This document shows, piece after piece, positions 1,112 to 43,945 of a DNA stretch of 53,388 bases (position 1 is the stretch's first letter; every line of letters starts with the position of its first letter). The notes below the pieces were generated by a model. The model had not been told where the DNA came from. It made no database searches and saw only the letters and a program-made list of their open reading frames with translations. Source of the stretch: Candidatus Pacearchaeota archaeon (lineage in GTDB: Archaea > Nanobdellota > Nanobdellia > Pacearchaeales > GW2011-AR1); contig JAGVWZ010000012.1 of the NCBI GenBank assembly GCA_018304045.1, forward strand, positions 1-53,388, in the 5' to 3' direction. A program made the position numbers and the translations under genes.

Positions 1112-1513
1112 ATGGCAAAAGCATGGGTTTGGGTTTTGGTTGGAGTTTTTGCAGTAATTGCTCTAGTCTGGATTAGTGATTATTGGTATAACTATTACAC
1201 AACTGGAACTTGTAGGGATGACCATGGAAATGCATATCCCTGTGGAAAGTCCTATAGATATTCTGATAACTATGATTACAATTATCTAAGTTATTCTTAC
1301 TATGATAGTTATGGAAACAGAGTTGTTGTAAACAAAGAGCATAATTTTGATGATTACTATGATTGCTATCATGCAAATATTCCTGATTCAAGATATGGGC
1401 AATTATTAAGAGAAGATTATGGAATAAGATGTTGGGGTTATGAGGTTTTGAATGATAATCCTATTACTTATTATTCTAATTCTGAAAAAGCCCCTATTAT
1501 TTACGTAAAGTAA
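1112..1513 (+). CDS. Tyr-rich protein with N-terminal TM helix
   Basis: N-terminal hydrophobic segment WVWVLVGVFAVIALVWI, then Tyr/Asp/Asn-rich domain. Confidence 0.6.
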   Translation: MAKAWVWVLVGVFAVIALVWISDYWYNYYTTGTCRDDHGNAYPCGKSYRYSDNYDYNYLSYSYYDSYGNRVVVNKEHNFDDYYDCYHANIPDSRYGQLLREDYGIRCWGYEVLNDNPITYYSNSEKAPIIYVK

Positions 1514-1712
1514 TTTAAAACTAGATATCTAACTAATAATTTTTACATTTGCATTTTGTTTTTAATTACTAGAACTATTATTATCCTTTAGCCTGTAACA
1601 TTAACAATAAAATATTCTTGAGAAATTTTTAAAGTAATAATTTGTATTTATTTTTCTAAACAAAAACAAAACCTATTTAAATTAGAATTAGTTTGTTTAA
1701 CTAATTTTAGAT

Positions 1713-2477
1713 ATGAAAAAGCCTTATTTAAAAAAAGTTGGTGTATTTAATGGGTATAATGTATGGTATGTTAATGGATATTATATTCGAAATAATCTTG
1801 ATAAAGAGTTCACTAATTTTGGCAGTAATAGATATTTTCATTTTATTCCAAAACATGAATTATGGATCGATTATGAAAATGGGAAAAAAGAAGCTAGATT
1901 TTTTATTGATAATTTTTTAATGATACAAAAAGAATTGAAAAATGGACATTCGTACAATGATGCTGTAAACATTGCAAATAGGCATGAAGGTGCTGAAAGA
2001 AGTAAGTCTAAACATATTATAAAATTAAAGAAAATAAAAAATAAAGAAAAATTAGTGAAAAAAGTACATATGAAAAGAATTTTCTCTAAATATACAAAAA
2101 ATATTAAAATATGGATTGTGAGGGGAGACTTAGTAAGAAGTTTGTTTTACATTGATTTTACAGAAGGAGGTCATGATAAGGTTTATCATTTTGTTCCTAA
2201 ACATGAAATTTGGATTGATGATGAGGTGTATAAAAAAGAAATTCCATATGTTTTGATACATGAACTTCATGAGAGATTCTTAATGGGAGAAGGCTGGGAA
2301 TATGATTCAGGTGGTGTTGGTGTATTTTCAAGAAAACCTAAGAAAGGAACAAAATCTGCTCATTTTGAAGCTGAAAAACTAGAAGCATTTTGCAGAGAAC
2401 ATCCAAAACAAGTCAAGACCTTGCTTATTAAAGCTATAAAAAATAATGATAAACAAGCTGAAAATGATCTGAAGTAG
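1713..2477 (+). CDS. hypothetical protein with internal duplication (HF[IV]PKHE[LI]WID repeated)
   Basis: 254-aa ORF; HFIPKHELWID and HFVPKHEIWID in two halves; second half followed by HELHERFLM. Confidence 0.7.
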   Translation: MKKPYLKKVGVFNGYNVWYVNGYYIRNNLDKEFTNFGSNRYFHFIPKHELWIDYENGKKEARFFIDNFLMIQKELKNGHSYNDAVNIANRHEGAERSKSKHIIKLKKIKNKEKLVKKVHMKRIFSKYTKNIKIWIVRGDLVRSLFYIDFTEGGHDKVYHFVPKHEIWIDDEVYKKEIPYVLIHELHERFLMGEGWEYDSGGVGVFSRKPKKGTKSAHFEAEKLEAFCREHPKQVKTLLIKAIKNNDKQAENDLK

Positions 2478-2695
2478 ATTTTCATTAGTAATGTAAAAAT
2501 ATCTTTAGAAGCTTATAAAAAATAATCTTTGCCTATATTCTTACATATTTTCATAGTTAAGTTAAAACTATTTGCCCATTTAGAATAAGCACACCATCCT
2601 TGCAAACTTTCTGAAAGTTGATTCATACTAATATCTCCTTTGTTGTATTGATTTATCTTTAAAATTACCTTTCTAATATTCCTCTTTCTTAATAA

Positions 2696-3462
2696 GAAGT
2701 GCTTCAAAGTGAAGACCTTACTAAAAAAGAGATAAATTTTTAACCAATGATTTATTTGAGATGTTATGAAAAGTAAAGAAGTAAAAAACATTGATTTTTG
2801 GGAAAGATTGTTAAGTGAACTTCCAGAGTCGTATAAAGAATGGTTTAAAGAAGAGAGAAAATTTCTTCACGACATCTAACAAGAAACTCTAAGGTGCTAG
2901 AGGTGGGATGTGGAGATGGTAGAAGTATAAAAGATATAATTGATATAACTCAAAATATTACTGCAATAGACCACGACCAAAAGGCAGTAAATGATGCTAT
3001 TGATAATTTTAAGGAATATCCAAATATAAAAATAATTTTGGGAGATGCAAGAGAATTACTTTTTAAAGATAAAAACTTCGACTTTGTTTTGTGTCTTACA
3101 ACTTTTGCAAATTTTGGAGATAACAAATTCAAGGCATTGGGGGAAATGAAAAGAGTGCTAAAAAATAGAGGAAAAATAATAATTAGTGTTTTTTCAGAAG
3201 ACGCTTTTGAAGAAAGGATGAAGGTTTATAAAAAACTTGGAAGCCCTATAAAAGAGATAATTGATAACAAAAAAGTTATATTTAATGAAAGTCTTGGAGA
3301 CAATGTTTCTGAGCAGTTCTCAGAGAATGAATTAATTAAAATATTTAATAAAATTAATCTTAATGTGGAAATAATAGAGAAGTCAGGAATCGGTTATATG
3401 TGTTTATTATCCAAAATTAAGAGTCCTTAGTAAGGTCTACGAAATGAATACCTTCTTAATAA
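2696..3462. mobile_element. cassette-like insertion 1 in DGR RT (methyltransferase cargo)
   Basis: bounded by gaagaccttactaa (2711-2724) and ttagtaaggtct (3427-3438) inverted arms and by CTTCTTAATAA cores at 2685-2695 (ttTCTTAATAA variant) and 3452-3462. Confidence 0.6.
2766..3430 (+). pseudogene. class I SAM-dependent methyltransferase, frameshifted near 2876
   Basis: VLEVGCGDGRS motif I and LGDARELLFKDKNFDFVLCL; MKSKEVKNIDFWERLLSELPESYKEWFKEERKFLHD lies in another frame directly upstream. Confidence 0.65.
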
Positions 3463-3974
3463 GAAAGACTTCAATGTGAAGACCTTACTAAGTTTGTTTA
3501 AAAGATTTTAATAAAGTATAATGTTCTGCAGTGTATTGTGGCAGGTTTCTGTTTTCAGGTATTAGAGTCTGTGTAACAATCCTGTAATTACCAATAATTG
3601 CTGTATTTGGAAACATAGCTTCAACTGCCCCACTTCTTTCTTCCTGTTTACTAGAATAAGCAACTCTCTCTCCATTTAATTCATAGCCAACATCTCCCCT
3701 AAAATCAATAGGTATAGTCTCCCCACTATCAGTTAATAGATGTAAGGTGCTTATATCTTTTCTAATAGCTACAGGTTGCCCAGAAGGCATTTCTGTTAAA
3801 ATAGTGGATGTCCTCTTAAAAAGTATCTTTAATAATCCTTTAGCACTAGATTCTTTGGGTATTTCTTGTTCTCCCATTTTAACATAATTAAAATAAGATT
3901 TTTAAAGATTCATATATTGCAATATATCTTTATTAAATTTAGTAAGGTCTTCAAAAAGGATACCTTCTTAATAA
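3463..3974. mobile_element. cassette-like insertion 2 in DGR RT (129-aa ORF cargo)
   Basis: arms gaagaccttactaa (3478-3491) and ttagtaaggtcttc (3939-3952), a perfect 14-bp inverted repeat; core ccttcttaataa at 3963-3974. Confidence 0.6.
3488..3877 (-). CDS. hypothetical protein, cassette 2 cargo
   Basis: 129-aa ORF. Confidence 0.55.
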   Translation of the reverse strand: MGEQEIPKESSAKGLLKILFKRTSTILTEMPSGQPVAIRKDISTLHLLTDSGETIPIDFRGDVGYELNGERVAYSSKQEERSGAVEAMFPNTAIIGNYRIVTQTLIPENRNLPQYTAEHYTLLKSFKQT

Positions 3975-4867
3975 TCTAAAGTGATAAAAATTCCTGAAAC
4001 CAACAAAATCTATTCCTCTTGAAAGAGGAATTACTCTAGATTTATCTGGATGAAGCTCTAATTTTAATTCATTTATCAAAAAGAGGTTGATTTGGGTTTT
4101 CCAAGTTTCAAGTTGCTCTCTTGATTGATGCAAAATAACAAAATCGTCAACATATCTTATATAATATTTTGCTTTTAATTTATGTTTTACAAAATAATCA
4201 AGTTCATTTAAATAGATATTAGCAAAAAATTGGGATGTTAAGTTTCCAAGAGGCATGCCTTTATTTTGCATAGCAAAATTGGGGGGGGGGGCAAACTAAT
4301 TTTGGAGGTATTTTCTAAAATCTTTTCAATCAACAAAATAACTTTTTCATCTTTAATTTTCTTTTTGATAATGCTTAAAAGAATTTTATGATTAACTTCT
4401 TCAAAATAATGTTTTATATCTGCTTTAATACAGAATGCCTCTGATTTCAAATTATTGGTAACTTTTCTTTTGAATTCATCAAATCTCTTTATTGCAAATA
4501 AATTGCCCTTGCCCTTTCGATTTGCACAGGAATCATAGATAAATGTTTTATCAAAAATAGGTTCAATTATTCTTATTAAAGCATGATGAATAACTCTATC
4601 TCTAAAAGCGGATTTGTTTATTTTTCTTGTTTTTGGGTCTCTTAGTATAAATGTTATTAATGGTTTTGGTTGATAAATCTGTTTAGTCAATTCATTTTGC
4701 AGTTGAAATAAATTTTTGATTGTATCTTTTTCAAATTCTATGACATAAGGTTTCTTTGTTTTATGTTTTCTTGCTTTTCTCCAAGCAAGAAGTAAATTAG
4801 AGAGGTTATAAACTTGTGAATATAATTCTTTCTCTTCCATAAAATATAAATCCTAACCATTTCTGAG

Positions 4868-4958
4868 CTATTCTGCCGTTGTCATTGGAATTAGCCAAGT
4901 CATCATCATTAGCATTCCAGTTGCCATTCCTGTTAAGGTAAGCCCTGAACAACTTATA
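4868..4958 (-). repeat. DGR template repeat (TR)
   Basis: coding strand reads LFRAYLNRNGNWNANDDDLANSNDNGRIA with dense AAC/AAT codons; aligns ungapped to 5243-5333 with differences only at A. Confidence 0.93.
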
Positions 4959-5120
4959 GCCAATTTATCTATTCCCAAAAATTAATTTGGTCACTGAAAA
5001 TCCTCGCAAGTATTTTCTGTATTTCATGGCATAATAAATTTTAATAATGCACTAATAAATTGACATGTAGCCCAGCCATTTATGGCTAGGAATTTAATAA
5101 AGAAAAATATCTATATATAT

Positions 5121-5915
5121 TTATGCTCTAAGTCTGGCTATAAGATCGGCTCTTTCTTTTTGTTGTCTAGTTAAAAGTTCTGTTGCTTGTCTTTGTAATT
5201 CTTCAAAATTTTTTTGCGCAGCTTCGCCAGTTGTTTCAACCACTACCCTGCCGAGGTCACTGGAATCAGCCAAGTCAACATCACCAGCATCCCAGACGCC
5301 ACCCCTGTAAAGGCAAGCCCCGAACAACCCATTATTTGATGGTGAATAATTCCAATTGAAATCTTGAGTGTTTAAAACCTGGGATTTAGCTAAATCTCTT
5401 CCTTGTTCTGATAATACTAAGACTAATCCGCTTGGAGACTTTTCATCAACCATATAAGTTAAGGCACTATAGGGTATAAGTTTTGGGCTTGTTAAATCCA
5501 TTCCTATGCCTTGTAAATTTTCTGCTAATGCTTTCGCTTGTACAGGATTAACTTGATAACCTTGTTCCCCAACAAGATTTAATCCAAAATCAACATAAAA
5601 ACCAGACATAAAACTAGGATTATTTTCTTTTGCAACTTGCAATCTTGGTATTGCAACAAGAACTTTTCCTTCTGGAAGAATTTCATTTAAAATAACTAAT
5701 CTATATGGGCTTGATTGTGCTAATCTTCCATCTCTTTCTTCAAATGAACCTAAAGTTTGCTTAACTCTTTCCATTAATCCTTCATCCGGAATAGTTCCTA
5801 AAATACTTTTAACTTTTTCAGAATATAATTGAGGATAATTTCCTGATTCTAAAGCTACACACATTGGAACTTCTTCAGATCTTATTGCAACTGCTGAATA
5901 ACTTGGTTTTGCCAT
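5121..5915 (-). CDS. DGR target protein, C-type-lectin-like VR domain plus ~30-aa charged C-terminal tail
   Basis: 264-aa ORF containing VR; GLFGACLYRGGVWDAGDVDLADSSDLGR resembles CLec-fold DGR targets. Confidence 0.85.
   Translation of the reverse strand: MAKPSYSAVAIRSEEVPMCVALESGNYPQLYSEKVKSILGTIPDEGLMERVKQTLGSFEERDGRLAQSSPYRLVILNEILPEGKVLVAIPRLQVAKENNPSFMSGFYVDFGLNLVGEQGYQVNPVQAKALAENLQGIGMDLTSPKLIPYSALTYMVDEKSPSGLVLVLSEQGRDLAKSQVLNTQDFNWNYSPSNNGLFGACLYRGGVWDAGDVDLADSSDLGRVVVETTGEAAQKNFEELQRQATELLTRQQKERADLIARLRA
5243..5333 (-). repeat. DGR variable repeat (VR) within the target gene
   Basis: encodes LFGACLYRGGVWDAGDVDLADSSDLGRVV; 19 hand-counted substitutions versus TR, all at TR adenines. 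Confidence 0.93.
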
Positions 5916-6015
5916 ATTATTTATATTATTCCTTTGTTTTTAAACCTTTCTATAGTTATATAACTATCTAGTGATAACAAAATAATCTTAAATAGTAGTT
6001 GTTTCTTTATTTATT

Positions 6016-6534
6016 ATGAAAAATAAGATATTAATTTTATTTTTTGTATTTTTATTAATTGGCATTAATTTTGTTTCTGCTGCATTTTATGGAGGATATA
6101 AAGGATCAAATTCTAATTATGTAAATTCTGGTTCTGCACCAATTTATAATCTAAGGTATCAGGGTGCTTCAAATGAACCATCTACATCCTATTATTCTGG
6201 CTATTGGAATGGTAACTCCGGAAGCAGTAGCTCAAGTTCTTCAAGTGCTTCGAGTAGTGCAAAAACATTTAATGGACCCTATACACAAGTTCATTCACAA
6301 AATACAGCTTCTTATCCAAGGCCGGTTTCAACACCTACACCTAGTTCAAATAATTTCCAAGGTGGAAATGGATATTCTGGTTATGGTGGATATTATGGAT
6401 ATGGTAGTTATGGTTATTCTAGTGGGTATTATGGTGGTTATGGGTATGGTTATAATTATTATTCTCCTACATATTATGGATATTCTTCCTATGATTATTA
6501 CAGTGATTATTATCCTGCTTATTATTGGTATTAA
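6016..6534 (+). CDS. secreted low-complexity Ser/Gly/Tyr-rich protein
   Basis: signal peptide ILILFFVFLLIGINFVSA; YGGYGYGYNYY repeats. Confidence 0.7.
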   Translation: MKNKILILFFVFLLIGINFVSAAFYGGYKGSNSNYVNSGSAPIYNLRYQGASNEPSTSYYSGYWNGNSGSSSSSSSSASSSAKTFNGPYTQVHSQNTASYPRPVSTPTPSSNNFQGGNGYSGYGGYYGYGSYGYSSGYYGGYGYGYNYYSPTYYGYSSYDYYSDYYPAYYWY

Positions 6535-6596
6535 CTTATCTTAGATATATTTTATAATATAATTTTGTTTTTAAAGCAACATTTATTTTATTATGA

Positions 6597-7811
6597 ATGG
6601 TACATTTAGTTGGAGTTCATCATGCAGGGTTTAATTCTTTATTTGGAATTCCGGAATTAACTGTTAATCAATTTGGACTTATTCCAGGAGATGATTTTTT
6701 AACTTTTTTGTCTGATTTTCCTGATGGAACAAAAGTTGGATTAGAAACATTTACAACAGGAGATTTTGAAACGGTTCAAGATCACCTTGCTTCATTGAGG
6801 CTTGATGGAAGATATCCTTCTGAACATAATAAATATTGGGATGCTTTAAAATCAGTATGCGGGAAATTTAGATTTCCCTATGAATGTTTAGAAGATACTA
6901 GACTCTGGTATAAATACAATCAACTAATGGTTAATTTTACTAGATTAAATGAAGTTATTCATGAAAGAGTTTTATTTCAAGAGGAAGGTGAAAGTGATTT
7001 TCATTATAATGTTAAGTTGGCAAAGTGCAATGAATTAAGACATAGAAGTCAACTTAAGGTAAAACAGGTTCATGAGTTAGATAGAGATAAAAGATTATTA
7101 GAAAGAATTGCTGAAGCAAAAGTAGATATTGCTATTGTTGGAGATGGGCATGCTGCTGTATGGTATGCAGAAAAAGATAGAGTAAAAAGAGAATTTGGAA
7201 TTGATTTGGAAAGTTATTCAACTGAATTAATGACTCCAACAGGATATCCTGGACAATATGTTATGGAATTTACTCAAAATGCTACACCTAATGATCAAAC
7301 TGTTTTCTATAATAATATTTTATTAAGATCCTTAAGACTAGTTAGTGGAGAAAGATTGATTTATGGAAGAAAACCTGACTTTGTTGGGACATGGAGAAAT
7401 GTTATGCCTTCTGAAGGTTATTTTGAAGTTTTTTCAAATGGAAATGGATTTTCAGGAGAGATTTCTGATTGTATTGGAGATGCTGTGTTTGAAGGTGAAG
7501 TAAATGATCAAGGAGTCAGATTTATAAAAAAATATACTCGTGCAAACCAAACCTTAACAAAACCAATAGAATATAGAGGAATGAAAGTTGATGGTGGATA
7601 TTGTGGATATTATGGGGTTAAAGGTTGTGGAGGCGGATTATTTTTTATGAGGGCAGGAGAAAGTGCAAAACCACTTGACCTTTCTGTTGGAATCTACAGA
7701 ACATTGGCTGATAAAAAAGAAGAATTGCATGAAATTGCAGATCAATTATTTGGAAAGAGCTCTCAAGTTGCAGAAGTTGAAACTAGAGATTCTGGAGAAT
7801 TTCCTTTTTAG
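6597..7811 (+). CDS. hypothetical protein
   Basis: 404-aa ORF; possibly TraB/erythromycin-esterase-like N-terminus (VHHAGFNS, GLETF, IAIVGDGHA). Confidence 0.6.
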   Translation: MVHLVGVHHAGFNSLFGIPELTVNQFGLIPGDDFLTFLSDFPDGTKVGLETFTTGDFETVQDHLASLRLDGRYPSEHNKYWDALKSVCGKFRFPYECLEDTRLWYKYNQLMVNFTRLNEVIHERVLFQEEGESDFHYNVKLAKCNELRHRSQLKVKQVHELDRDKRLLERIAEAKVDIAIVGDGHAAVWYAEKDRVKREFGIDLESYSTELMTPTGYPGQYVMEFTQNATPNDQTVFYNNILLRSLRLVSGERLIYGRKPDFVGTWRNVMPSEGYFEVFSNGNGFSGEISDCIGDAVFEGEVNDQGVRFIKKYTRANQTLTKPIEYRGMKVDGGYCGYYGVKGCGGGLFFMRAGESAKPLDLSVGIYRTLADKKEELHEIADQLFGKSSQVAEVETRDSGEFPF

Positions 7812-7902
7812 AAATTATTATTCCGAAAACTATTTAAGGTTTAAATATCTAATATAATTATATACGCTCACCATTGCGTAAGCAATGGGTGGGCACTTTA
7901 TA

Positions 7903-8385
7903 ATGAAAAGAGTTTCCATATTTATTGATGGTAATAATTTTTATCATGGATTAAAATACATTTACAAAGATTCAAAGAAATTTATGGACTTTAATTTTGA
8001 AAAATTCTGTAACTTTTTAGTTGAGGATAATCAGATAATAAATATCTTTTATTATAATGCTTGCCTAGATAAAAATGAAAATAAGGGCAAATATAATAGT
8101 CAACAAAAATTCTTTGAAAAATTAAGAAAAATTCCTAAATTTAATCTAATTTTATGTAAACTTTTGAAAAGAAAGATTAAAGGTAAAAATGAATATTATT
8201 ATGTCTTTAAAGAAGATGATATTCATATGGCTGTAGATATGGTTGAAGGTGCTTGTGAAAATAAATTTGAGATTGCTATGTTAGTTTCAGGGGATGGTGA
8301 TTTTGTTCCAGCAGTTAAATCTACTCAAAAACATAATAAATATGTAGAAAACATATACTTCAAAAAAGCTCTTCAAGAAGCCTAA
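7903..8385 (+). CDS. NYN-domain (LabA/DUF88-type) protein, likely frameshifted at the C-terminus
   Basis: MKRVSIFIDGNNFYHGLK, DIHMAVDMVEGA and LVSGDGDFVPAVK motifs; SSRSLKLICNESIELTKEILDKLF continues in another frame. Confidence 0.75.
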   Translation: MKRVSIFIDGNNFYHGLKYIYKDSKKFMDFNFEKFCNFLVEDNQIINIFYYNACLDKNENKGKYNSQQKFFEKLRKIPKFNLILCKLLKRKIKGKNEYYYVFKEDDIHMAVDMVEGACENKFEIAMLVSGDGDFVPAVKSTQKHNKYVENIYFKKALQEA

Positions 8386-8463
8386 AACTAATTTGCAATG
8401 AATCTATTGAATTAACAAAGGAAATTTTAGATAAGTTATTTTAATAGAATAATTTAGCAATAA

Positions 8464-9354
8464 TTATCTAGAAATTACATAGAATATTTCATTTCTTGTC
8501 TTTATTATCTCAAATTTTAGGTTAATTCTTTCAAGCATTAATTCAAAACCTTTTCTTCTTGGAAGATTCATTGGCTTTCCACCAATGGTTCTTGTTGCAA
8601 AGCTTGCAACTATGAATTTTGTTTTATTCATTAATATTTTTATTAATTCTTCTCCTGGTTTTGCATCTTTTGTATTTATGAGATCTATTAATTTTAGTAG
8701 AAAGATTATATCTCCATTGGGAATCATCGAGACATTGGTTAGATTTTTTGCATCGAGTATCTGTGCATTTCCATTAAGTCCAAATGGTCTCATTATTTTG
8801 AAAAATTCATTTAGAAAATTAATATCTTCATTGTCAATATCATAGGCAAAATAATTTAGATTATCTATTTGCATATATGGATAGGATATGGGATTTAATC
8901 CACAACCAATGTCAATTATTGTTTTTGGTTTGTCTGTTATTTGGAAGATTTTATTGTATATTTCTTCATAATCTTCCAATCTTTCTTTTGCTGAAACAGC
9001 TGTAGAAAGAATCTTATTAATAATATCTACGACACCTAACGGTTTCTTAGATGTATCTTCCCTAGAGATTACATTTTTTAATTCATGAAGAAGTTTAGTT
9101 CTCTTTGATTTTTTACCTCGCAGGTATGATGAATATAGGCGATGGAGTTTAGATCTTATTTCTTTAATATCTTGTTTTGTAATCTTTTCTACTTTATTCT
9201 TTTTTAAATGATTATTTATTTCTTCTAGAACTATTTCATCTGCTATTGAAGAATATTTTTTGTTCTTTTTTATTTCTTGAAGAAGCTGAGTTGTGAGAGA
9301 TTCCATGATAGTAATAAAAATAAAAATCAGTATTAAAACTTTTATAATAAACAT
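8464..9354 (-). CDS. FmrO/ArmA-like 16S rRNA methyltransferase family protein
   Basis: STAVSAKERLEDYEEIYNKIF followed by IIDIGCGLNPISYPYM, a pattern of the Rmt/FmrO methyltransferase family. Confidence 0.7.
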   Translation of the reverse strand: MFIIKVLILIFIFITIMESLTTQLLQEIKKNKKYSSIADEIVLEEINNHLKKNKVEKITKQDIKEIRSKLHRLYSSYLRGKKSKRTKLLHELKNVISREDTSKKPLGVVDIINKILSTAVSAKERLEDYEEIYNKIFQITDKPKTIIDIGCGLNPISYPYMQIDNLNYFAYDIDNEDINFLNEFFKIMRPFGLNGNAQILDAKNLTNVSMIPNGDIIFLLKLIDLINTKDAKPGEELIKILMNKTKFIVASFATRTIGGKPMNLPRRKGFELMLERINLKFEIIKTRNEIFYVISR

Positions 9355-9395
9355 AACAGAAAAATTTATATACTATAGCGTTCTATATAGTTACT

Positions 9396-9620
9396 ATGGT
9401 AACAACAATACAGATAAGTGAAGAATTATTAGAACGTCTCAAAAAGATGAAACTTCATGAAAAAGAGAGTTATGAGGACATAATCCTAGACTTAATTGAG
9501 GATAGATTAGAGTTATCAGAAGAAACTAAAAGAGAAATTGAAGAATCAAGAAAAGAGGCAATAGAAGGCAAAGTTCATAAATGGGAAGATGTAAAGAGGG
9601 AGCTGAAATTAAATGTATGA
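9396..9620 (+). CDS. VapB/RelB-like antitoxin
   Basis: TTIQISEELLERLKKMK ribbon-helix-helix N-terminus; overlaps the RelE-like ORF. Confidence 0.75.
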   Translation: MVTTIQISEELLERLKKMKLHEKESYEDIILDLIEDRLELSEETKREIEESRKEAIEGKVHKWEDVKRELKLNV

Positions 9621-9861
9621 ACTTATATTTACTGATAAAGCAAAACAGCAGTTTAAAAAATTAGAAAAGCAAGTGCAAGAGAGAATTGGGGCTGTTTTTG
9701 AAAGAATTAAAGTCCGCCCTTATGATTATGTTGAAAAATTAGTTGGAGAACCTGGATATAAATTGAGAGTTGGAGATTATAGAGTTTTTCTAGATATTGA
9801 TAATAATAAATTAATAATTCTTGTTCTAAAAGTAGGACATAGAAAAAATATTTACAAGTAA
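9613..9861 (+). CDS. RelE/ParE-family toxin
   Basis: YELIFTDKAKQQFKKLEKQVQERI...VGEPGYKLRVGDYRVFLDID...VLKVGHRKNIYK. Confidence 0.85.
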   Translation: MYELIFTDKAKQQFKKLEKQVQERIGAVFERIKVRPYDYVEKLVGEPGYKLRVGDYRVFLDIDNNKLIILVLKVGHRKNIYK

Positions 9862-9881
9862 TAAAAATCATTTGATTTTTA
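9860..9881 (+). terminator. hairpin downstream of the TA operon
   Basis: palindrome ATAAAAATCATTTGATTTTTAT. Confidence 0.35.
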
Positions 9882-9986
9882 TCGAGGAGATTTATCATTA
9901 ATAATTTTCAAAAAAACAAAACATACAGAAATTAATTTGAAAATTTCTGTCCTTTTCCGTTGTTAAAATTCAAAACAACAGAAAAG

Positions 9987-9994
9987 TTTATAAA
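9987..9994 (+). promoter_or_regulatory. TATA box of the EF-1A gene
   Basis: tttataaa about 23 nt before ATG 10017, archaeal leaderless-type spacing. Confidence 0.65.
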
Positions 9995-10016
9995 CCTATT
10001 TTTTTATCATATAGAC

Positions 10017-11306
10017 ATGGCACAAGTTAAACCAACAATGAATGTTGTATTTGTAGGTCATGTTGACCACGGAAAATCTACATGTGTAGGCAGGCTTATG
10101 TATGATTCCGGAGTTATTCCTGAACAGGAAATGAAAAAATTAAAAGAAGAAGCTGTAAAACATGGAAAAGTTGGATTTGAATTTGCATTTGTTATGGATA
10201 AAATTAAGGAAGAAAGAGAAAGAGGAGTTACAATTGATTTATCTTATCAAAAATTAATCACACCTAAAAGACAGATTACAATAATTGATGCTCCTGGTCA
10301 CAAAGACTTTGTAAAGAACATGATTACTGGTGCTTCACAAGCTGATGCTGCTTTTTTAACAATTTCTGCTAAAGATGGAGTTCAACCTCAAACTAAAGAA
10401 CATTTATGGTTACTTAGAACAATGGGAGTTCAGCAAATAGCTGTTTCATTAAATAAAATGGATGCTGTTGATTACAAAGAAGAAGCTTTCAATAAAGTTA
10501 AAGCTGAAGTTTCTACTTTATTAAAAGGAGTTGGAATCAACCCTGAAAAAACATTATTCTTAGCTGTTTCTGGATTAATGGGAGATAATATTTTTAAGAA
10601 ATCAGATAAAATGCCTTGGTACAAAGGGCCTACAATATATGAACAATTAGACTTATTTGATGAACCAAAAAAACCAACTGATTTACCAATGAGAATGCCT
10701 ATTCAAGATGTTTATGAAATTACTGGAATTGGAACTGTTCCTGTTGGAAAAATTGAAACTGGGATAATGAAAGTTGGACAAAAAATCAAGATTTTACCTG
10801 GAAGAAGTGGAAGAGGAATAGATGGTGAAATAAAAAGTATTGAAATGCACCATGAACAATTCCAAGAAGCTCAAGCTGGATTTAATGTTGGAATAAATAT
10901 AAGGGGAGTTGGAAAAAAGGATATTGCAAGAGGAGATGTTATTTGCGATGCTGCTAAACCTGCAACAATGGTTGAAGAATTTACAGCACAAATTGCAGTA
11001 ATAAATCATCCAACTGTAATTGCAAAAGGATATACACCTGTATTCCATGTTCATACTGCTCAAGTTCCATGTCAATTCACTGAAATAGTTCATAAAATAG
11101 ATCCTACAAGTGGACAACCAATGCCTGGAAAAGTTGATTTTATCAAGAATGGGGATGTTGCAATTGTTAAATTAAAACCTATGGGAAATTTAGTTCTTGA
11201 AACTTCAAAAGTTAATCCTCATATGGCAAGATTTGCAATAAGAGATGCTGGAGCAACTGTTGCTGCTGGTGTTTGTATGGAAATAGTTGAAAAGAAATTA
11301 GCTTAA
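10017..11306 (+). CDS. tuf: translation elongation factor EF-1 alpha
   Basis: MAQVKPTMNVVFVGHVDHGKSTCVGRL; DAPGHKDF; NKMD; internal ATG preferred over the 9960 track start. Confidence 0.97.
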   Translation: MAQVKPTMNVVFVGHVDHGKSTCVGRLMYDSGVIPEQEMKKLKEEAVKHGKVGFEFAFVMDKIKEERERGVTIDLSYQKLITPKRQITIIDAPGHKDFVKNMITGASQADAAFLTISAKDGVQPQTKEHLWLLRTMGVQQIAVSLNKMDAVDYKEEAFNKVKAEVSTLLKGVGINPEKTLFLAVSGLMGDNIFKKSDKMPWYKGPTIYEQLDLFDEPKKPTDLPMRMPIQDVYEITGIGTVPVGKIETGIMKVGQKIKILPGRSGRGIDGEIKSIEMHHEQFQEAQAGFNVGINIRGVGKKDIARGDVICDAAKPATMVEEFTAQIAVINHPTVIAKGYTPVFHVHTAQVPCQFTEIVHKIDPTSGQPMPGKVDFIKNGDVAIVKLKPMGNLVLETSKVNPHMARFAIRDAGATVAAGVCMEIVEKKLA

Positions 11307-11340
11307 ATTATATTTCTAAACCTGAAACTGGAGGGAAGAG

Positions 11341-11556
11341 TTGAGGAAGATTAAAATGACTGAACCTACACAAAATCCTTTAGAAAAAATTGCTTCAAAT
11401 CCTGTTTCCAATATTTCTCAAAAACCTGCATCATTGAGAGACTGGGAAGCTGAAATTGTTTTTAATGATGCCTATAGGGGATGTTTATACCCTATTGTTG
11501 TAATTTTAGCTTCAATTGCAAGTGGTTGCGCTGCCTTATCTTCTGTTTACAAATAA
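11341..11556 (+). CDS. small membrane protein
   Basis: C-terminal TM-like YPIVVILASIASGCAALSSV. Confidence 0.45.
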   Translation: MRKIKMTEPTQNPLEKIASNPVSNISQKPASLRDWEAEIVFNDAYRGCLYPIVVILASIASGCAALSSVYK

Positions 11557-11732
11557 AATGGAAAATCCAAATTATCAAAATTCAAAACTTCCAGAAGAAC
11601 CTTCTATAAGAGAATATGATGAATTTAGGGATAGACATAAGACTTGGGAACAGATAAGAACTGAAAGATATAATTCTTGTTGATTAGAACTTCTTAATAT
11701 ATATTTATAAACCAAATTTTTATTTATTTAAC

Positions 11733-12476
11733 ATGGGAAAAATAATTGCTATTGGTGGAGGAGAATTAAAAGATCTTGATACTTTTTCAATTGATGAAGA
11801 AGTTATCAGACTTACTGGTAAGAAGAATCCAAAAGCACTTTTTATTCCAACTGCTAGTAAAGATGCAGAAGGATATTGGGAAACATTTAAACAGGTTTAT
11901 GGAAATAGGCTTGGATGTAAAACTGATGTTTTAAGACTTGTGAATGAAACTCCTTCTTTAAAAGAAATTAAAGAAAAAATATTTGGTTCTGACTTAATTT
12001 ATGTTGGTGGTGGAAATACTCTTGAGATGCTTGAAATTTGGAGAAAACATGGAGTTGATGAGGTATTAAAGAAAGCCTATGAAAGAGGAATTGTTCTATC
12101 AGGACTTTCTGCTGGTGCAATTTGCTGGTTCAGATATGGATGCAGTGATTCACCAAGATTTGCAAATGCAACTGATGCATCTTTTGTAAGAATAAATGGA
12201 CTTGGACTTGTGAACCTTACTATGAGTCCTCATCATATTCGTGAACAGCATAGAGATAATGGTTTAACTGAAATAATGAAGACAACACCTGGAGTTGGCA
12301 TTGGGCTTGATGATAATTGTGCATTGGAGATTGTCAATGGTACCTATAGATTTATAGGATCAAAAGCAGGAGCTGGAGCTAAGAGAGTTTATTATAAAAA
12401 TTATAAACCTGTTGTGGAAAGAATGAGAGTAAATGAAAATTATTTTTTGTTAGACAGGCTTGTTAAAAAACAATAA
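11733..12476 (+). CDS. peptidase S51 / cyanophycinase-like protein
   Basis: IAIGGGELKD; YVGGGNTLEML; LSGLSAGAICW nucleophile motif. Confidence 0.85.
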   Translation: MGKIIAIGGGELKDLDTFSIDEEVIRLTGKKNPKALFIPTASKDAEGYWETFKQVYGNRLGCKTDVLRLVNETPSLKEIKEKIFGSDLIYVGGGNTLEMLEIWRKHGVDEVLKKAYERGIVLSGLSAGAICWFRYGCSDSPRFANATDASFVRINGLGLVNLTMSPHHIREQHRDNGLTEIMKTTPGVGIGLDDNCALEIVNGTYRFIGSKAGAGAKRVYYKNYKPVVERMRVNENYFLLDRLVKKQ

Positions 12477-12821
12477 TATTTTTAAATTGCTTATTTTCTT
12501 AAATTTCATGGTATGTGAAACAAAACCTGCATTTCTATATATGTATCTCAGCAGGATATTCTGGATTTTGAGATACAAAATGGAGCAAGGAGTTGGGATT
12601 ATGGTGAATTAGAACAAGAATTCGCTCTACAATTTGAAAGTGCAAAAAGTGATGAAGAACAAGAGAAATTAAGGATAAAATTTATTGTTAAACTAAATGC
12701 AAAATATAAGCTTATTTATTCTAATGCTCTAAATTCTTCGATTGACCTTAGATATAGACAAAGAGGATTTCATGTTGTTTATGCTTTACTGGATAATACT
12801 GAAATTTCAGATGTTATTCGA

Positions 12822-36901: not shown

Positions 36902-37008
36902 GCCTTCGTCGCAAAGTGGTATTGCAACGGATTGCTATAAATTGAAATAAAAATATTGCAAAAATCCGTGTCCTTCGGGACTCCCGGGTTCAATTCCCGG
37001 CGAGGGCG
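36902..37008 (+). tRNA. tRNA-Ser(GCU) with intron
   Basis: GCCTTCG/CGAGGGC acceptor; ACGGA-TT-GCT-A-[26-nt intron]-A-TCCGT; long variable arm TCCTTCGGGA; CCGGG-TTCAATT-CCCGG T arm; perfect BHB (TTGC/GCAA helix, TAT and AAA bulges). Confidence 0.9.
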
Positions 37009-38723: not shown

Positions 38724-38844
38724 AGTTTAATGCAGAGAGACTAAATAATAAATCTTTCTGTTTATTAAAAAATCTGAAATTTCATTTCCTTTCTAAAAAT
38801 ATAATAAATTAGATCATAGTATCCTGCCCTTTTTGGGTTCCATA

Positions 38845-38897
38845 TTGCTAATCCGCGACCTTTACCGGTCTCCTGGGTTCAATTCCCAGTGGCGGCG
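38845..38897 (+). repeat. tRNA-Ser(GCU) 3'-half copy 2 (att-like)
   Basis: TTGCTAA-TCCGC-GACC..GGTC-CTGGG-TTCAATT-CCCAG-TGGCGGC-G, no matching 5' half. Confidence 0.8.
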
Positions 38898-38904
38898 TTT
38901 TATA

Positions 38905-38944
38905 TTGCTGAACCCAGGTTCCTGGGTATTTCCCAGTGGCGGCG
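38905..38944 (+). repeat. degenerate tRNA-Ser 3'-half copy 3
   Basis: TTGCTGAACCCAGGTTCCTGGGTATTTCCCAGTGGCGGCG. Confidence 0.6.
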
Positions 38945-39074: not shown

Positions 39075-39713
39075 ATGAATTCCATGAAAAAAGTGATTAT
39101 ATTAATAGATGGAAATAATTTTTATCACAACTTGAAGCATATGAAGATTAAGCCAAGCAATGTTGATTTCAAAAAACTAACTGATTTTATAGCTAAGTAT
39201 TTTGATTTAGAACTGCAGGAAGTTAGATATTATAACTCAATGCCAACATTAAGAGATGGAAGAAATTTGTATTTTTCCCATCTTAAGTTTATTGATGATT
39301 TAAAGAAAATACCTAAATTTTCTGTTCATACAAGAAAACTCCAAGTTCATTCAAACAAAGAACTATTAAAAGAAAAACAGGATTTGATTGATTCAATGGA
39401 TTTGTGTGAAAACTGCAAGCCTATTGTTGAACAAAACATTTTTGATGCAGTTAGCAATATAAAAAAGAAGGAAAAAGGTATTGATATTATGCTCGGAATT
39501 GATTTGGTTGAATCTGCAATAGAAGATAAAGCAGATAGTTTTATAGTTGTTTCAGGAGATGCTGATTTTGTTCCTGCAATGAAACTAACAGAAAAGAAAG
39601 GCAAAGATGTCTATAGTGTTAGTCTTGCAAAGGGTTACAGCAAAGAATTAAGGGACAATTTCAAGTTTTTTGTAATTGGAAAGAATATGATAATTGAAAA
39701 TTGTTTAAAATAA
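39075..39713 (+). CDS. NYN-domain (LabA/DUF88) protein
   Basis: KVIILIDGNNFYHNL; GIDIMLGIDLVESA; VSGDADFVPAMKL. Confidence 0.85.
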   Translation: MNSMKKVIILIDGNNFYHNLKHMKIKPSNVDFKKLTDFIAKYFDLELQEVRYYNSMPTLRDGRNLYFSHLKFIDDLKKIPKFSVHTRKLQVHSNKELLKEKQDLIDSMDLCENCKPIVEQNIFDAVSNIKKKEKGIDIMLGIDLVESAIEDKADSFIVVSGDADFVPAMKLTEKKGKDVYSVSLAKGYSKELRDNFKFFVIGKNMIIENCLK

Positions 39714-39714
39714 A

Positions 39715-40077
39715 ATGGTCTCCCTTACAAAAGCTGAAAAAGATAAATTGAAAGAGATATTAACAAAATCTAAAGATAAAGAAGCAAAAGAAATTATTAA
39801 AAAAATAGATAATGAAAAGAAACTAAAATATGCCTATTACAAAAAAGATATTAAAGCGTTTTTAAGACAAGCATTTAAAGAAAAAAAGAAGGTAAAAATA
39901 AGATATTATAGCTTATCTTCAGATGAAATCAAATGGAGAACAGTTTCTATTTACCAACTTGGTTCTGATTTCATTATTGCTTATTGCCATTTGAGAAATG
40001 AAGAAAGAACTTTTGTAACTGATAGAATTTCCCAAGCTGCAATTTTAGATGAAAGTTATAAAATTCCAAATGGCTGA
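39715..40077 (+). CDS. WYL-like domain protein
   Basis: AFKEKKKVKIRYYSLSSDEIKWRTVSIYQL...YCHLRNEERTFVTDRI. Confidence 0.7.
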   Translation: MVSLTKAEKDKLKEILTKSKDKEAKEIIKKIDNEKKLKYAYYKKDIKAFLRQAFKEKKKVKIRYYSLSSDEIKWRTVSIYQLGSDFIIAYCHLRNEERTFVTDRISQAAILDESYKIPNG

Positions 40078-40116: not shown

Positions 40117-40419
40117 ATGATAAATGAAAAAGAAAGACCAAAATGGCCTATGCAAAGGCTGAAAGGAATGTATTTTGCTATGCATTGTTGGAAATGTAAA
40201 AAGTTTGAACTTCCTCAGGAAGAGTTTGAACAAACAGAGTATGAAAAGAGTTGTGAGCCAAATATTCAGAAAATTATTCATAGATTGGACTTAAAAGAAA
40301 TGAGATTTAAAGATTTTAATATTATTATTAAAAATAGTGTGTTCTGCAAATTTGAAAAAAGAGATTTTAGTAATAATTGTCCTATTTGTAAGAAATTTGG
40401 AGTTCCAAACCATTTCTAA
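40117..40419 (+). CDS. CxxC small protein, paralog A
   Basis: KERPKWPMQRLKGMYFAMHCWKCKKFELP...CPICKKFG; close paralog at 43479. Confidence 0.75.
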   Translation: MINEKERPKWPMQRLKGMYFAMHCWKCKKFELPQEEFEQTEYEKSCEPNIQKIIHRLDLKEMRFKDFNIIIKNSVFCKFEKRDFSNNCPICKKFGVPNHF

Positions 40420-40492
40420 TCACATGATTGGTGGAAAATCGGTGAAAATATAATTTATTATATTTAATATGTAGCCATATTTGGGTTACATA

Positions 40493-40543
40493 TTGCTAAT
40501 CCATGACCTTCGGGACTCCCGGGTTCAATTCCCGGCGAGGGCG
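40493..40543 (+). repeat. tRNA-Ser(GCU) 3'-half copy 4
   Basis: last ~38 nt (CCTTCGGGACTCCCGGGTTCAATTCCCGGCGAGGGCG) identical to the intact tRNA gene. Confidence 0.85.
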
Positions 40544-41194: not shown

Positions 41195-41788
41195 TTGGTG
41201 TGTCATTTTACCTTTAAAATGAAAAATAAAAAAATAACTCTTAATCAAGAAAAAATAGAAATAAAAGAAGTATCTAAAATAGCTGGGCTTTCATCTAAAG
41301 AGGTTAGTATAATTTCATGGCTCGAATTTTATCAAAAGTATTTTTTTACTTCAGATGATATAAGTTTCTTTTTTAATGACAAAAGAGCTCTATATAGAAT
41401 AATACAAAAACTGCTTAGAAAAAAAAGAATAATGAAACTTAATAAAAATAAATATTATTTAATTCCTATAAAAGCTAGAACAGGGAAATGGAGTGAGCAT
41501 GAATTCATAATGGTTGATGAACTATGCAATTCAGGAGAATATTATATTGGCGGCTGGACTGCTGCTAACTATTGGAGGCTTACTGATCAGATTCCTGCTT
41601 GGACAGAGATCTATACAAAAAATAAACAAGGTAAAAAGATTATAGGAAATACAAGAATCATTTTTCATAGAATAAGAAAAGTAGATAAAGATAAATACAT
41701 AATAAAAACGATAAAAGGACATGAGTTTAAGATATTAAAAAAAGGAGAGACAAAAAAATGGTTGAAGTTAAGAGAATACCTGCTATAG
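41195..41788 (+). CDS. AbiEi-type antitoxin/regulator
   Basis: winged-helix-like N-terminus; overlaps the AbiEii-like gene; GGWTAANYWRLTDQIP. Confidence 0.75.
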   Translation: MVCHFTFKMKNKKITLNQEKIEIKEVSKIAGLSSKEVSIISWLEFYQKYFFTSDDISFFFNDKRALYRIIQKLLRKKRIMKLNKNKYYLIPIKARTGKWSEHEFIMVDELCNSGEYYIGGWTAANYWRLTDQIPAWTEIYTKNKQGKKIIGNTRIIFHRIRKVDKDKYIIKTIKGHEFKILKKGETKKWLKLREYLL

Positions 41789-42540
41789 AATTCGAAGTTA
41801 TACTTGGAAAGACAAATTTTCTTAGAGAAAAACTAATTAAAGATTATTATCTAACTTTAATCCTCTATCTTATTAGAGACATTAAAGGCATTTATTTTAA
41901 AGGTGGAACTGCTCTTAACAAAATATTCCTCAATCATGCAAGACTATCTGAAGATCTGGATTTTTCTTTAACAAAAGATGAAAAAGAAGTAAAAGAGGAT
42001 ATATCAAAGGTTCTAAGTGATTCAAATTTTATTAAAGAGATTACAGAAGGCAAAAATGTTGATGGTTTCTTGAGGATGATAATAAAATGCCAGTCTGAAA
42101 TAGGGGAAAGTGAGATTTTCATTGATTTGAATAAAAGAGCAAAACTTGTGCTTCCATCTGAAGAGCATGAAATCAACCATTTTTATGCTCCCTTTATTCC
42201 TAAGTTTTCTATAAAAACTGTTGCAGAAGAAGAACTGATTGCTGAAAAAACAGCAGCAACAATAGGCAGAAATAAACCAAGAGACCATTATGATGTTTAT
42301 ATGATATTAAAGAAAGGTATTCCTATAAATATGGAACTTGTAAAGAAGAAATGCAATGAATCGGGAGACGAATTTTCTATAATAAAAATGTTCAACAAAG
42401 CAAAAATGTTAAAAAATAGATGGGATAAAGACATGGTATTTCTTATTTCTGAAGAAATAACTTTTCAGGAAGTAATAAAATTTTTATCAAAACATTTTAA
42501 TCTTAAAGAAGAAAAAGAAAAGATTAAGAAAAAGATATAA
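41758..42540 (+). CDS. AbiEii-type nucleotidyltransferase toxin
   Basis: FKGGTALNKIFLNHARLSEDLDFSL; VAEEELIAEKTAATIGRNKPRDHYDVYMI. Confidence 0.9.
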   Translation: MVEVKRIPAIEFEVILGKTNFLREKLIKDYYLTLILYLIRDIKGIYFKGGTALNKIFLNHARLSEDLDFSLTKDEKEVKEDISKVLSDSNFIKEITEGKNVDGFLRMIIKCQSEIGESEIFIDLNKRAKLVLPSEEHEINHFYAPFIPKFSIKTVAEEELIAEKTAATIGRNKPRDHYDVYMILKKGIPINMELVKKKCNESGDEFSIIKMFNKAKMLKNRWDKDMVFLISEEITFQEVIKFLSKHFNLKEEKEKIKKKI

Positions 42541-42562: not shown

Positions 42563-43495
42563 ATGGACATTGACAAGATTCTAGATAAAGCAGATGAAGA
42601 TAGATACTATAAGGGTCAAAATTATTACAAACAAAACAGGGTAAAAAACGGGATAATTTATAATAATTATTTAATTGCAGAAGTAATAGGGAGTGATATA
42701 TATAGGATTAAAATAAAACTTGGTAAAAATCCTGAATTTAATTGTACTTGTCCAGATAATGCAAATTATTGCAAGCATATTATTGCAGTATTATTAATGT
42801 ATAAATATAGAAAAGAATGGTTTGTTGATTTCGATAAGTTATTATCTGATTTAGGAAAGAAAGACAAACAGGAACTACTAAATATAATCAAACAAATGTA
42901 CTTAAATAAAATTGATCTAATAAGTATATTAAAAATTAATAATTTTCAAATCAAGGAAATCAATGATTTTTCAAAAGATATTTATGGTGTGGAAGATTTA
43001 TTTGTAGAATATGTTCATTATGAAGAAATGTCTAATTTAATAAAAAAACTAGACTCTATAATTACTATCTCGCAGGAATTTAGTGAGAAGAAAGATTTTA
43101 TATCTGAATTTGCAGTATTATGGTCTTTGATAAGAACTATTTCAAATAAAATTGGAGATTGTGATGATTCGGATGGGCAGATAGGAGAATTATTCTTTGA
43201 ATGTGTTCAAGGATTTTCTAAAATTATTAATAAGGTTTTAGTAGAAAAATATAAGAGGGAAAAATTTTATCATGAAGTGCTAACCCTCTGGGAAAAGAAT
43301 GACTTTGGGATAGAAGATGGTTTTTTAGATATAATAGAAGAAACTGCAACTGGAGAAGATTCCGATTTTTTAATAGAAGAAATTAAAAAGATAATTAGCA
43401 AAAATAAATCAAAATATTTTATTGAATATAAAAAAGAAGATTTAGAAGAACTTATTTCCCATCTAAAAGAATTGAAAAATGGAAAAAGCTTATAA
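42563..43495 (+). CDS. SWIM zinc-finger protein
   Basis: YNCTCPDNANYCKHIIAVLL-type CxCx(n)CxH motif. Confidence 0.85.
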   Translation: MDIDKILDKADEDRYYKGQNYYKQNRVKNGIIYNNYLIAEVIGSDIYRIKIKLGKNPEFNCTCPDNANYCKHIIAVLLMYKYRKEWFVDFDKLLSDLGKKDKQELLNIIKQMYLNKIDLISILKINNFQIKEINDFSKDIYGVEDLFVEYVHYEEMSNLIKKLDSIITISQEFSEKKDFISEFAVLWSLIRTISNKIGDCDDSDGQIGELFFECVQGFSKIINKVLVEKYKREKFYHEVLTLWEKNDFGIEDGFLDIIEETATGEDSDFLIEEIKKIISKNKSKYFIEYKKEDLEELISHLKELKNGKSL

Positions 43496-43787
43496 AAAAG
43501 AAAGACCAAAATGGCCTATGCAGAGGCTTAAAGGAATGTATTTTGCTATGCATTGCTGGAAATGCAAAAAGTTTGAACTTCCTGAAGAGGAATTTGAACC
43601 TACAGAGTATAAACTGAAATGTGAAAAGAACATTCAAAGAATAATTGATATTCTAGATGTTAAAGAAATGAAATTTAAGGATTTTAACAATATTATTAAG
43701 AATAGTGAATTCTGTAGATTTGAAAAAAGAGATTTTAGTAATAATTACCCTATTTGCAAGAAATTTGGGATAACAAATCATCTCTAA
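43479..43787 (+). CDS. CxxC small protein, paralog B
   Basis: ~90% DNA identity by eye to the 5' part of paralog A. Confidence 0.75.
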   Translation: MEKAYKKERPKWPMQRLKGMYFAMHCWKCKKFELPEEEFEPTEYKLKCEKNIQRIIDILDVKEMKFKDFNNIIKNSEFCRFEKRDFSNNYPICKKFGITNHL

Positions 43788-43895: not shown

Positions 43896-43945
43896 TTGCT
43901 AATCTGTGCCCTTTGGGTTCCTGGGTTCGATTCCCAGTGAAGGCG
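43896..43945 (+). repeat. tRNA-Ser(GCU) 3'-half copy 5
   Basis: TTGCTAA-TCTGT-GCCCTTTGGGTTC-CTGGG-TTCGATT-CCCAG-TGAAGGC-G. Confidence 0.8.

What the first reader, a model, noticed from the sequence alone, without database searches (positions are those of the whole stretch)
36926..36973. 26-nt tRNA intron sits in the anticodon loop where the att-like copies begin: possible anti-integration intron
The resident gene reads ACGGA-TTGC-TA|TAAATTGAAATAAAAATATTGCAAAA|A-TCCGT. It forms a canonical bulge-helix-bulge (TTGC/GCAA 4-bp helix, TAT and AAA 3-nt bulges) and splices to TTGCTAA, the loop seen uninterrupted in the 3'-half copies. The intron therefore disrupts the presumed att core. It has been proposed in the literature that archaeal tRNA introns protect tRNA genes from integration; this locus has both intron and integration scars.
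Basis: partly seen in the sequence, partly recalled or inferred. Interest (0 to 1): 0.72.

Follow-up and report, generated by a model that had tools for sequence, protein, structure and literature searches.

The report
tRNA intron inside an integration hotspot
A serine tRNA gene of an uncultured archaeon has a small, ordinary-looking intron exactly in the seven bases that mobile DNA in related archaea uses as its landing site, so the intron should block such landings, but the data show only that it is probably younger than the landings recorded beside it, not that it evolved as a shield.

Summary
Window 36902-37008 is an intact tRNA-Ser(GCU) with a 26-nt intron (36938-36963) at canonical position 37/38, in a bulge-helix-bulge. 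Three downstream 3'-half copies (38845, 40493, 43896) lack the intron and start at the anticodon loop TTGCTAA. A fourth, degenerate one lies at 38905.

The att claim is supported from relatives. In one genus of the same family, G201 has an unsplit tRNA-Ser(GCU). In G203 the matching gene is split by an 11-kb element with a tyrosine integrase, and exactly TTGCTAA, the whole anticodon loop, is at both junctions. An intron at 37/38 cuts that 7-bp core after base 6 and moves the two stem arms from 7 to 33 bp apart.

Protection is not shown. Among orthologs, 4 of 21 intron-bearing and 6 of 65 intronless genes carry scars (p=0.25). I saw no displaced half with an intron. The farthest copy, c3, matches a same-genus ortholog; the resident 3' half does not. 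The intron is therefore probably younger than the displaced copies, gained with or after the last integration.

This is a known kind of intron in a known kind of site. Its value is a family in which the protection hypothesis can be tested.

The parts
36902..36937 (+). tRNA-Ser(GCU) 5' exon, ends TTGCTA (bases 32-37)
36938..36963 (+). 26-nt intron at 37/38, canonical bulge-helix-bulge (TTGC/GCAA)
   Evidence: absent in same-genus orthologs
36964..37008 (+). tRNA-Ser(GCU) 3' exon, starts at A38; probably delivered by an element
   Evidence: 96% to c2, 71-78% to orthologs of same-genus G001/G013/G015
38845..38897 (+). c1: intronless 3'-half copy TTGCTAATCCGCG...GGCGGCG
38905..38944 (+). degenerate further 3'-half copy (TTGCTGAACC...GGCGGCG)
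   Evidence: by eye; partial repeats
40493..40543 (+). c2: intronless 3'-half copy, 96% to the resident 3' exon
43896..43945 (+). c3: intronless 3'-half copy, 95% to the same-genus G013 gene and pairing fully with the resident 5' half; probably the original 3' half of the gene
38817..38844 (+). left flank of c1, homologous to that of c2 (shared att arm)
   Evidence: family D9 (46 nt, 80%)
40465..40492 (+). left flank of c2, homologous to that of c1
   Evidence: family D9
39075..39713 (+). cargo: NYN-domain protein; a homologue lies beside tRNA-Ser(GCU) in G014
39715..40077 (+). cargo: WYL-domain protein
   Evidence: homologue at the G017 tRNA-Ser island
40117..40419 (+). cargo: 100-aa CxxC protein (ORFx), just left of c2
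43479..43787 (+). cargo: ORFx paralogue, just left of c3 (82% DNA identity to 40124-40423)
41758..42540 (+). cargo: AbiEii nucleotidyltransferase

Best explanation
An ordinary archaeal tRNA-Ser(GCU) intron at 37/38, sitting in a gene whose anticodon loop is a recurrent integration site. Small elements accreted here by recombination at the 7-bp loop TTGCTAA, each time leaving an intronless 3' half on its far side. The intron came later, either with the last incoming 3' half or by intron gain afterwards. As a consequence it splits the 7-bp core and separates the two stem arms, so recombinases that need the intact loop should no longer use this gene; pre-tRNA splicing keeps the tRNA working. Shown: intron, BHB, intronless copies, and core = loop in two relatives. 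Inferred: the order of events, splicing, and loss of att function. Not shown: that the intron was selected for protection.
For: Intron and BHB. Same core in relatives: G203 occupied and G201 unsplit with matching halves, TTGCTAA at both junctions, attP arms GGACTA...TAGTCC, PF00589 integrase beside the right end; G170 likewise, arms CTATC/GATAG. I saw no displaced or broken half of this gene with an intron, in the window, G148, G077, G154, G170, G203, G017, G014, G002, G012 or G183. c3 is 95% identical to the gene of same-genus G013 and pairs 7/7 and 5/5 with the resident 5' half, whereas the resident 3' half is only 71-78% like G001/G013/G015, so the resident 3' half is probably an import. 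In G148 too, an introned resident gene lies 4.5 kb from an intronless 3' half matching its own 3' exon. Cargo homologous to the window's lies beside tRNA-Ser(GCU) in G014 and G017.
Against: No integrase in the window's island ORFs that were scanned, and only a XerA-like one plus one weak hit in the genome, so the enzyme that built these scars is unknown. c2 is nearer to the resident 3' half than c1 is, so simple one-after-another accretion does not explain every copy; gene conversion is possible. The genome is an 86%-complete draft.
Confidence: 0.62

Rival explanations
1. Anti-integration intron: the intron was kept by selection because it destroys the attB site in the anticodon loop after repeated costly integrations.
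For: It cuts the 7-bp core demonstrated in relatives; I saw no introned displaced half; where an integrase of this clade lies at tRNA-Ser(GCU) (G170, G203, G201, G091) the gene is intronless. At about 24% introned genes, roughly 13 scar-bearing genomes would give about 3 introned scars by chance; none was seen.
Against: Scar frequency does not differ, 4/21 against 6/65 (p=0.25). 37/38 is the commonest position for any archaeal tRNA intron (PMC3293823), and this genome has introns in six other tRNA genes. Scars may predate the introns.
Confidence: 0.22
2. Element-delivered intron (Sugahara 2012 model): the youngest element carried intron plus 3' half in its attP, so integration replaced an intronless 3' half by an intron-bearing one.
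For: The resident 3' half looks foreign while displaced c3 looks native; G148 has the same layout; one relative of the resident 3' half sits in a mosaic copy in G012.
Against: No intron-bearing attP was found; the one viral-contig scan, which looked for intronless 3' halves, gave nothing recognisable as archaeal tRNA-Ser(GCU) att sites. The crossover would have to tolerate a changed 7th core base and a different right arm.
Confidence: 0.3
3. The intron is irrelevant to integration: elements recombined within the 3' half, downstream of the intron, using an intronless 3'-half mimic in attP, so the resident gene kept its intron throughout.
For: Displaced copies would also look intronless; c2 is 96% identical to the resident 3' exon.
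Against: In G203/G201 and G170 the crossover is at the loop, not in the 3' half; copies in many genomes break exactly at TTGCTAA; it does not explain why c3 matches a same-genus ortholog while the resident 3' half does not.
Confidence: 0.12

Closest known systems
Archaeal tRNA BHB introns at 37/38
   Same: Position, 4-bp helix with two 3-nt bulges, restored cloverleaf
   Different: Nothing structural; what is unusual is that it lies beside three intronless half copies of the same gene
Caldiarchaeum tRNA-Thr(GGU) locus (Sugahara et al. 2012, PMC3293823)
   Same: Resident tRNA with an extra intron, a displaced tRNA piece nearby lacking that intron, mobile DNA between them; intron delivery by attP proposed
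   Different: There introns are at 24/25 and 45/46 and the displaced piece is a 5' fragment; here canonical 37/38 and several 3' halves in tandem
Anticodon-loop att sites of tyrosine integrases (SSV1 Int; review PMC8371274)
   Same: 7-bp overlap equals the anticodon loop, stem arms as binding sites (G203, G170)
   Different: In G203/G170 the host tRNA is cut in two and replaced by a complete tRNA gene carried by the element; the window island has no integrase gene
Islander-type genomic islands (PMC4383910)
   Same: Regenerated tRNA gene at one end, displaced fragment at the other, here in tandem
   Different: Very small, integrase-less units of about 1.5 to 3.4 kb

Membership tests
Archaeal BHB tRNA intron | Canonical position 37/38 and intact mature tRNA after removal | tested here: met
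Archaeal BHB tRNA intron | Bulge-helix-bulge at the exon-intron junctions | tested here: met
Archaeal BHB tRNA intron | Excision in vivo by the splicing endonuclease | not testable with these tools
   needs RNA or in vitro splicing
Archaeal BHB tRNA intron | Genome encodes the splicing endonuclease | not tested
Anticodon-loop att site of a tyrosine integrase | Crossover core is the anticodon loop, split against unsplit site | tested here: met
   G203 against G201, TTGCTAA at both junctions; shown in relatives, not in the window
Anticodon-loop att site of a tyrosine integrase | Repeats of the tRNA 3' part bound the inserted DNA in the window | tested here: met
   c1, c2, c3
Anticodon-loop att site of a tyrosine integrase | Integrase gene in the island | tested here: not met
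   no PF00589 hit in the contig or in the island ORFs scanned
Anti-integration intron | Intron interrupts the functional core | tested here: met
   the core is demonstrated in relatives only
Anti-integration intron | Introned orthologs carry fewer integrations | tested here: not met
   4/21 against 6/65, p=0.25, not phylogenetically corrected, low power
Element-delivered intron (Sugahara model) | Mobile attP containing intron plus 3' half | tested here: inconclusive
   viral-contig scan looked only for intronless 3' halves and found none recognisable as archaeal tRNA-Ser(GCU)

The most novel reading that the evidence does not exclude
The intron is itself the fossil end of an integrated element: the att arm right of the core was left between the host 5' half and an element-borne 3' half, and became a spliceable intron by forming a BHB. 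The reverse complement of the flank left of c3 (AATT---ATAAAAATGTTACAA) matches the intron (AATTGAAATAAAAATATTGCAA) at the same distance from the core (p=0.005 against random window 28-mers, one of three flanks tested). Integration at the loop would then create introns and the protection would be self-made.
Probability: 0.1. Interest if true: 0.85.

Novelty: new member of a known kind. Interest (0 to 1): 0.5.

Why it matters
Whether archaeal tRNA introns protect tRNA genes from mobile DNA, are delivered by it, or are unrelated to it has been argued for years without a direct test that I could find. This archaeal family offers introned and intronless orthologs, occupied and unsplit sites, and an integrase whose core is exactly the loop the intron breaks, so the question can be settled by a plain recombination assay and a strain-level survey.

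Tried and rejected
An integrase in the window island: none found. Organism name by a genome-contig scan with the 5'-half pattern: no match. Free attP in viral contigs: 46 hits, none recognisable as archaeal tRNA-Ser(GCU); mostly phage tRNA genes and chance matches. ORFx as a conserved terminal gene of the elements: in other genomes it usually follows a WYL gene and lies away from tRNA-Ser, so I treat it as cargo. A split, trans-spliced tRNA in G154: halves on two contigs with a 26-nt perfect complement, but both keep the whole TTGCTAA and no BHB forms by my reading, so attL/attR of an insertion is likelier; no intact gene was found in that draft. Intron homology to the flanks of c1, c2 and to the G148 flank: not significant. 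One search prints 3/7 for the c1 acceptor pairing because of a one-base slip in my slice; counted by hand it is 6/7.

Full report
What is there. Window 36902-37008 (+) is a complete class II tRNA with anticodon GCU. Both exons align to a covariance model of the family's tRNA-Ser(GCU) with one gap of 26 nt between bases 37 and 38 (92.2 bits; the spliced resident gene is one of the six sequences in that model). ARAGORN with introns allowed gives the same gene; the exact base of the cut is ambiguous by one A, which does not change the mature tRNA. TTGC of the loop pairs with GCAA of the intron, with TA^T and AA^A bulges; forcing this BHB costs 0.2 kcal/mol against the MFE. Six more tRNA genes in this genome have introns (some anticodon names given by ARAGORN are doubtful), so introns are normal here.

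The copies. Downstream lie three intronless 3' halves, c1 (38845), c2 (40493) and c3 (43896), and one degenerate piece (38905), all beginning at the anticodon loop. c1 and c2 share a 46-nt stretch that includes their left flanks. Between them is cargo: an M64-like peptidase, NYN, WYL, AbiEii, a SWIM protein and two paralogous CxxC ORFs. Homologues of the NYN and of the WYL/CxxC cargo sit beside tRNA-Ser(GCU) in G014 and G017. No integrase was found in the island.

The att core. Two relatives show what recombines. In G201 tRNA-Ser(GCU) is whole (it has an integrase gene just downstream, so it is unsplit rather than a pristine empty site). In G203, of the same genus, the same gene is cut in two...CACAAGG-TTGCTAA|ACTAGTCC... 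on the left...GGACTATC|TTGCTAA-CCTTGACC... on the right, 11 kb apart, with a tyrosine integrase near the right end and a complete, intronless tRNA-Ser(GCU) carried just inside the left end. G170 has a second such element with a 56%-identical integrase and arms CTATC/GATAG. The core is therefore the seven bases of the anticodon loop, as known for SSV1 integrase (PMC8371274). The 37/38 intron lies after the sixth base of that core and moves the stem arms from 7 to 33 bp apart (inference: attB destroyed).

Age of the intron. No displaced or broken half that I read, here or in other genomes of the family, carries an intron. c3 is 95% identical to the 3' half of the intact gene in same-genus G013 and pairs fully with the resident 5' half; the resident 3' half is only 71-78% like the G001, G013 and G015 genes, but 96% like c2 and 87% like a mosaic copy in G012. 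The simplest reading is that c3 is the old host 3' half and that the resident 3' half was brought in, with the intron either on it or gained afterwards. I do not know which genus member is closest to this genome, which limits this argument. G148 shows the same layout independently: introned resident gene, and 4.5 kb downstream an intronless 3' half that matches its 3' exon.

Test of protection. From two pattern searches over 181 family genomes and the fetched sequences I classed 21 orthologs as introned (G000, G039, G047, G054, G056, G071, G077, G079, G141, G144, G148, G158, G164, G167, G184, G187, G188, G221-G224) and 65 as intronless. Extra or broken copies occur in 4 of the 21 (G000, G148, G077, G144; 3 if G144's near-complete copies are left out) and 6 of the 65 (G170, G203, G017, G014, G002, G005): Fisher p=0.25 and 0.68. 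The classing was partly by hand and is not corrected for relatedness (G077, G167 and G222-G224 are one genus). G012, G154 and G183 have broken halves but no intact gene was found in the draft, and G211 has one gene of each kind; these four were left out. So introned genes are not depleted of scars; but scars cannot be dated against intron gain, and the absence of introned scars is what protection would predict. Neither protection nor its absence is shown.

Chance and caveats. The BHB alone could arise by chance at about 1 in 32 (my estimate), but all 11 introns checked in the family have it. The likeness of the intron to the inverted flank of c3 (p=0.005, one of three flanks) is suggestive only. 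All genomes are drafts without names; the archaeal, probably DPANN, nature of the host is inferred from its size and its tRNA introns.

Literature. The protection idea and its alternative, delivery by attP, are both published (PMC3293823, which cites Randau and Soell; PMC8371274). My few searches found no direct test.

Noticed in passing
window 2513-4840 (-): A reverse transcriptase-like gene (YVDD motif, by eye) appears broken into three ORFs by a 1.2-kb insert carrying a methyltransferase-like ORF; the insert is bounded by hairpin repeats TTAGTAAGGTCTTCA...CCTTCTTAATAA (2686, 3427, 3939). Similar hairpin sequences lie against broken tRNA-Ser(GCU) loops in G014:C79, G077:C26 and G154.
   Followed up: partly
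L258 (G203:C44) 1359-12640 and L194 (G170:C29 from 24000) 4333-10750: Integrative elements that cut tRNA-Ser(GCU) in the anticodon loop and carry a complete replacement tRNA-Ser(GCU); the G203 one has a Prim-Pol/AAA protein and a tyrosine integrase.
   Followed up: partly
L195 8010 (G154:C1) and L196 8040, 9265 (G154:C2): 5' half and two 3' halves of tRNA-Ser(GCU) on two contigs with a 26-nt perfectly complementary flank; either ends of a large insertion or a nascent split tRNA. No intact gene found in that draft.
   Followed up: partly
L050 (G017:C38): Two 5'-half copies, one with a near-identical promoter region, lie upstream of the intact gene: here the elements carry the 5' half rather than the 3' half.
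   Followed up: partly
window 40117-40419 and 43479-43787: Family of about 100-aa CxxC proteins, usually right after a WYL-domain gene and near toxin-antitoxin-like or defence genes in other genomes; no Pfam match.
   Followed up: partly
G211:C2 and G211:C16: A genome with two tRNA-Ser(GCU) genes, one with a 15-nt intron and one without.
   Followed up: no
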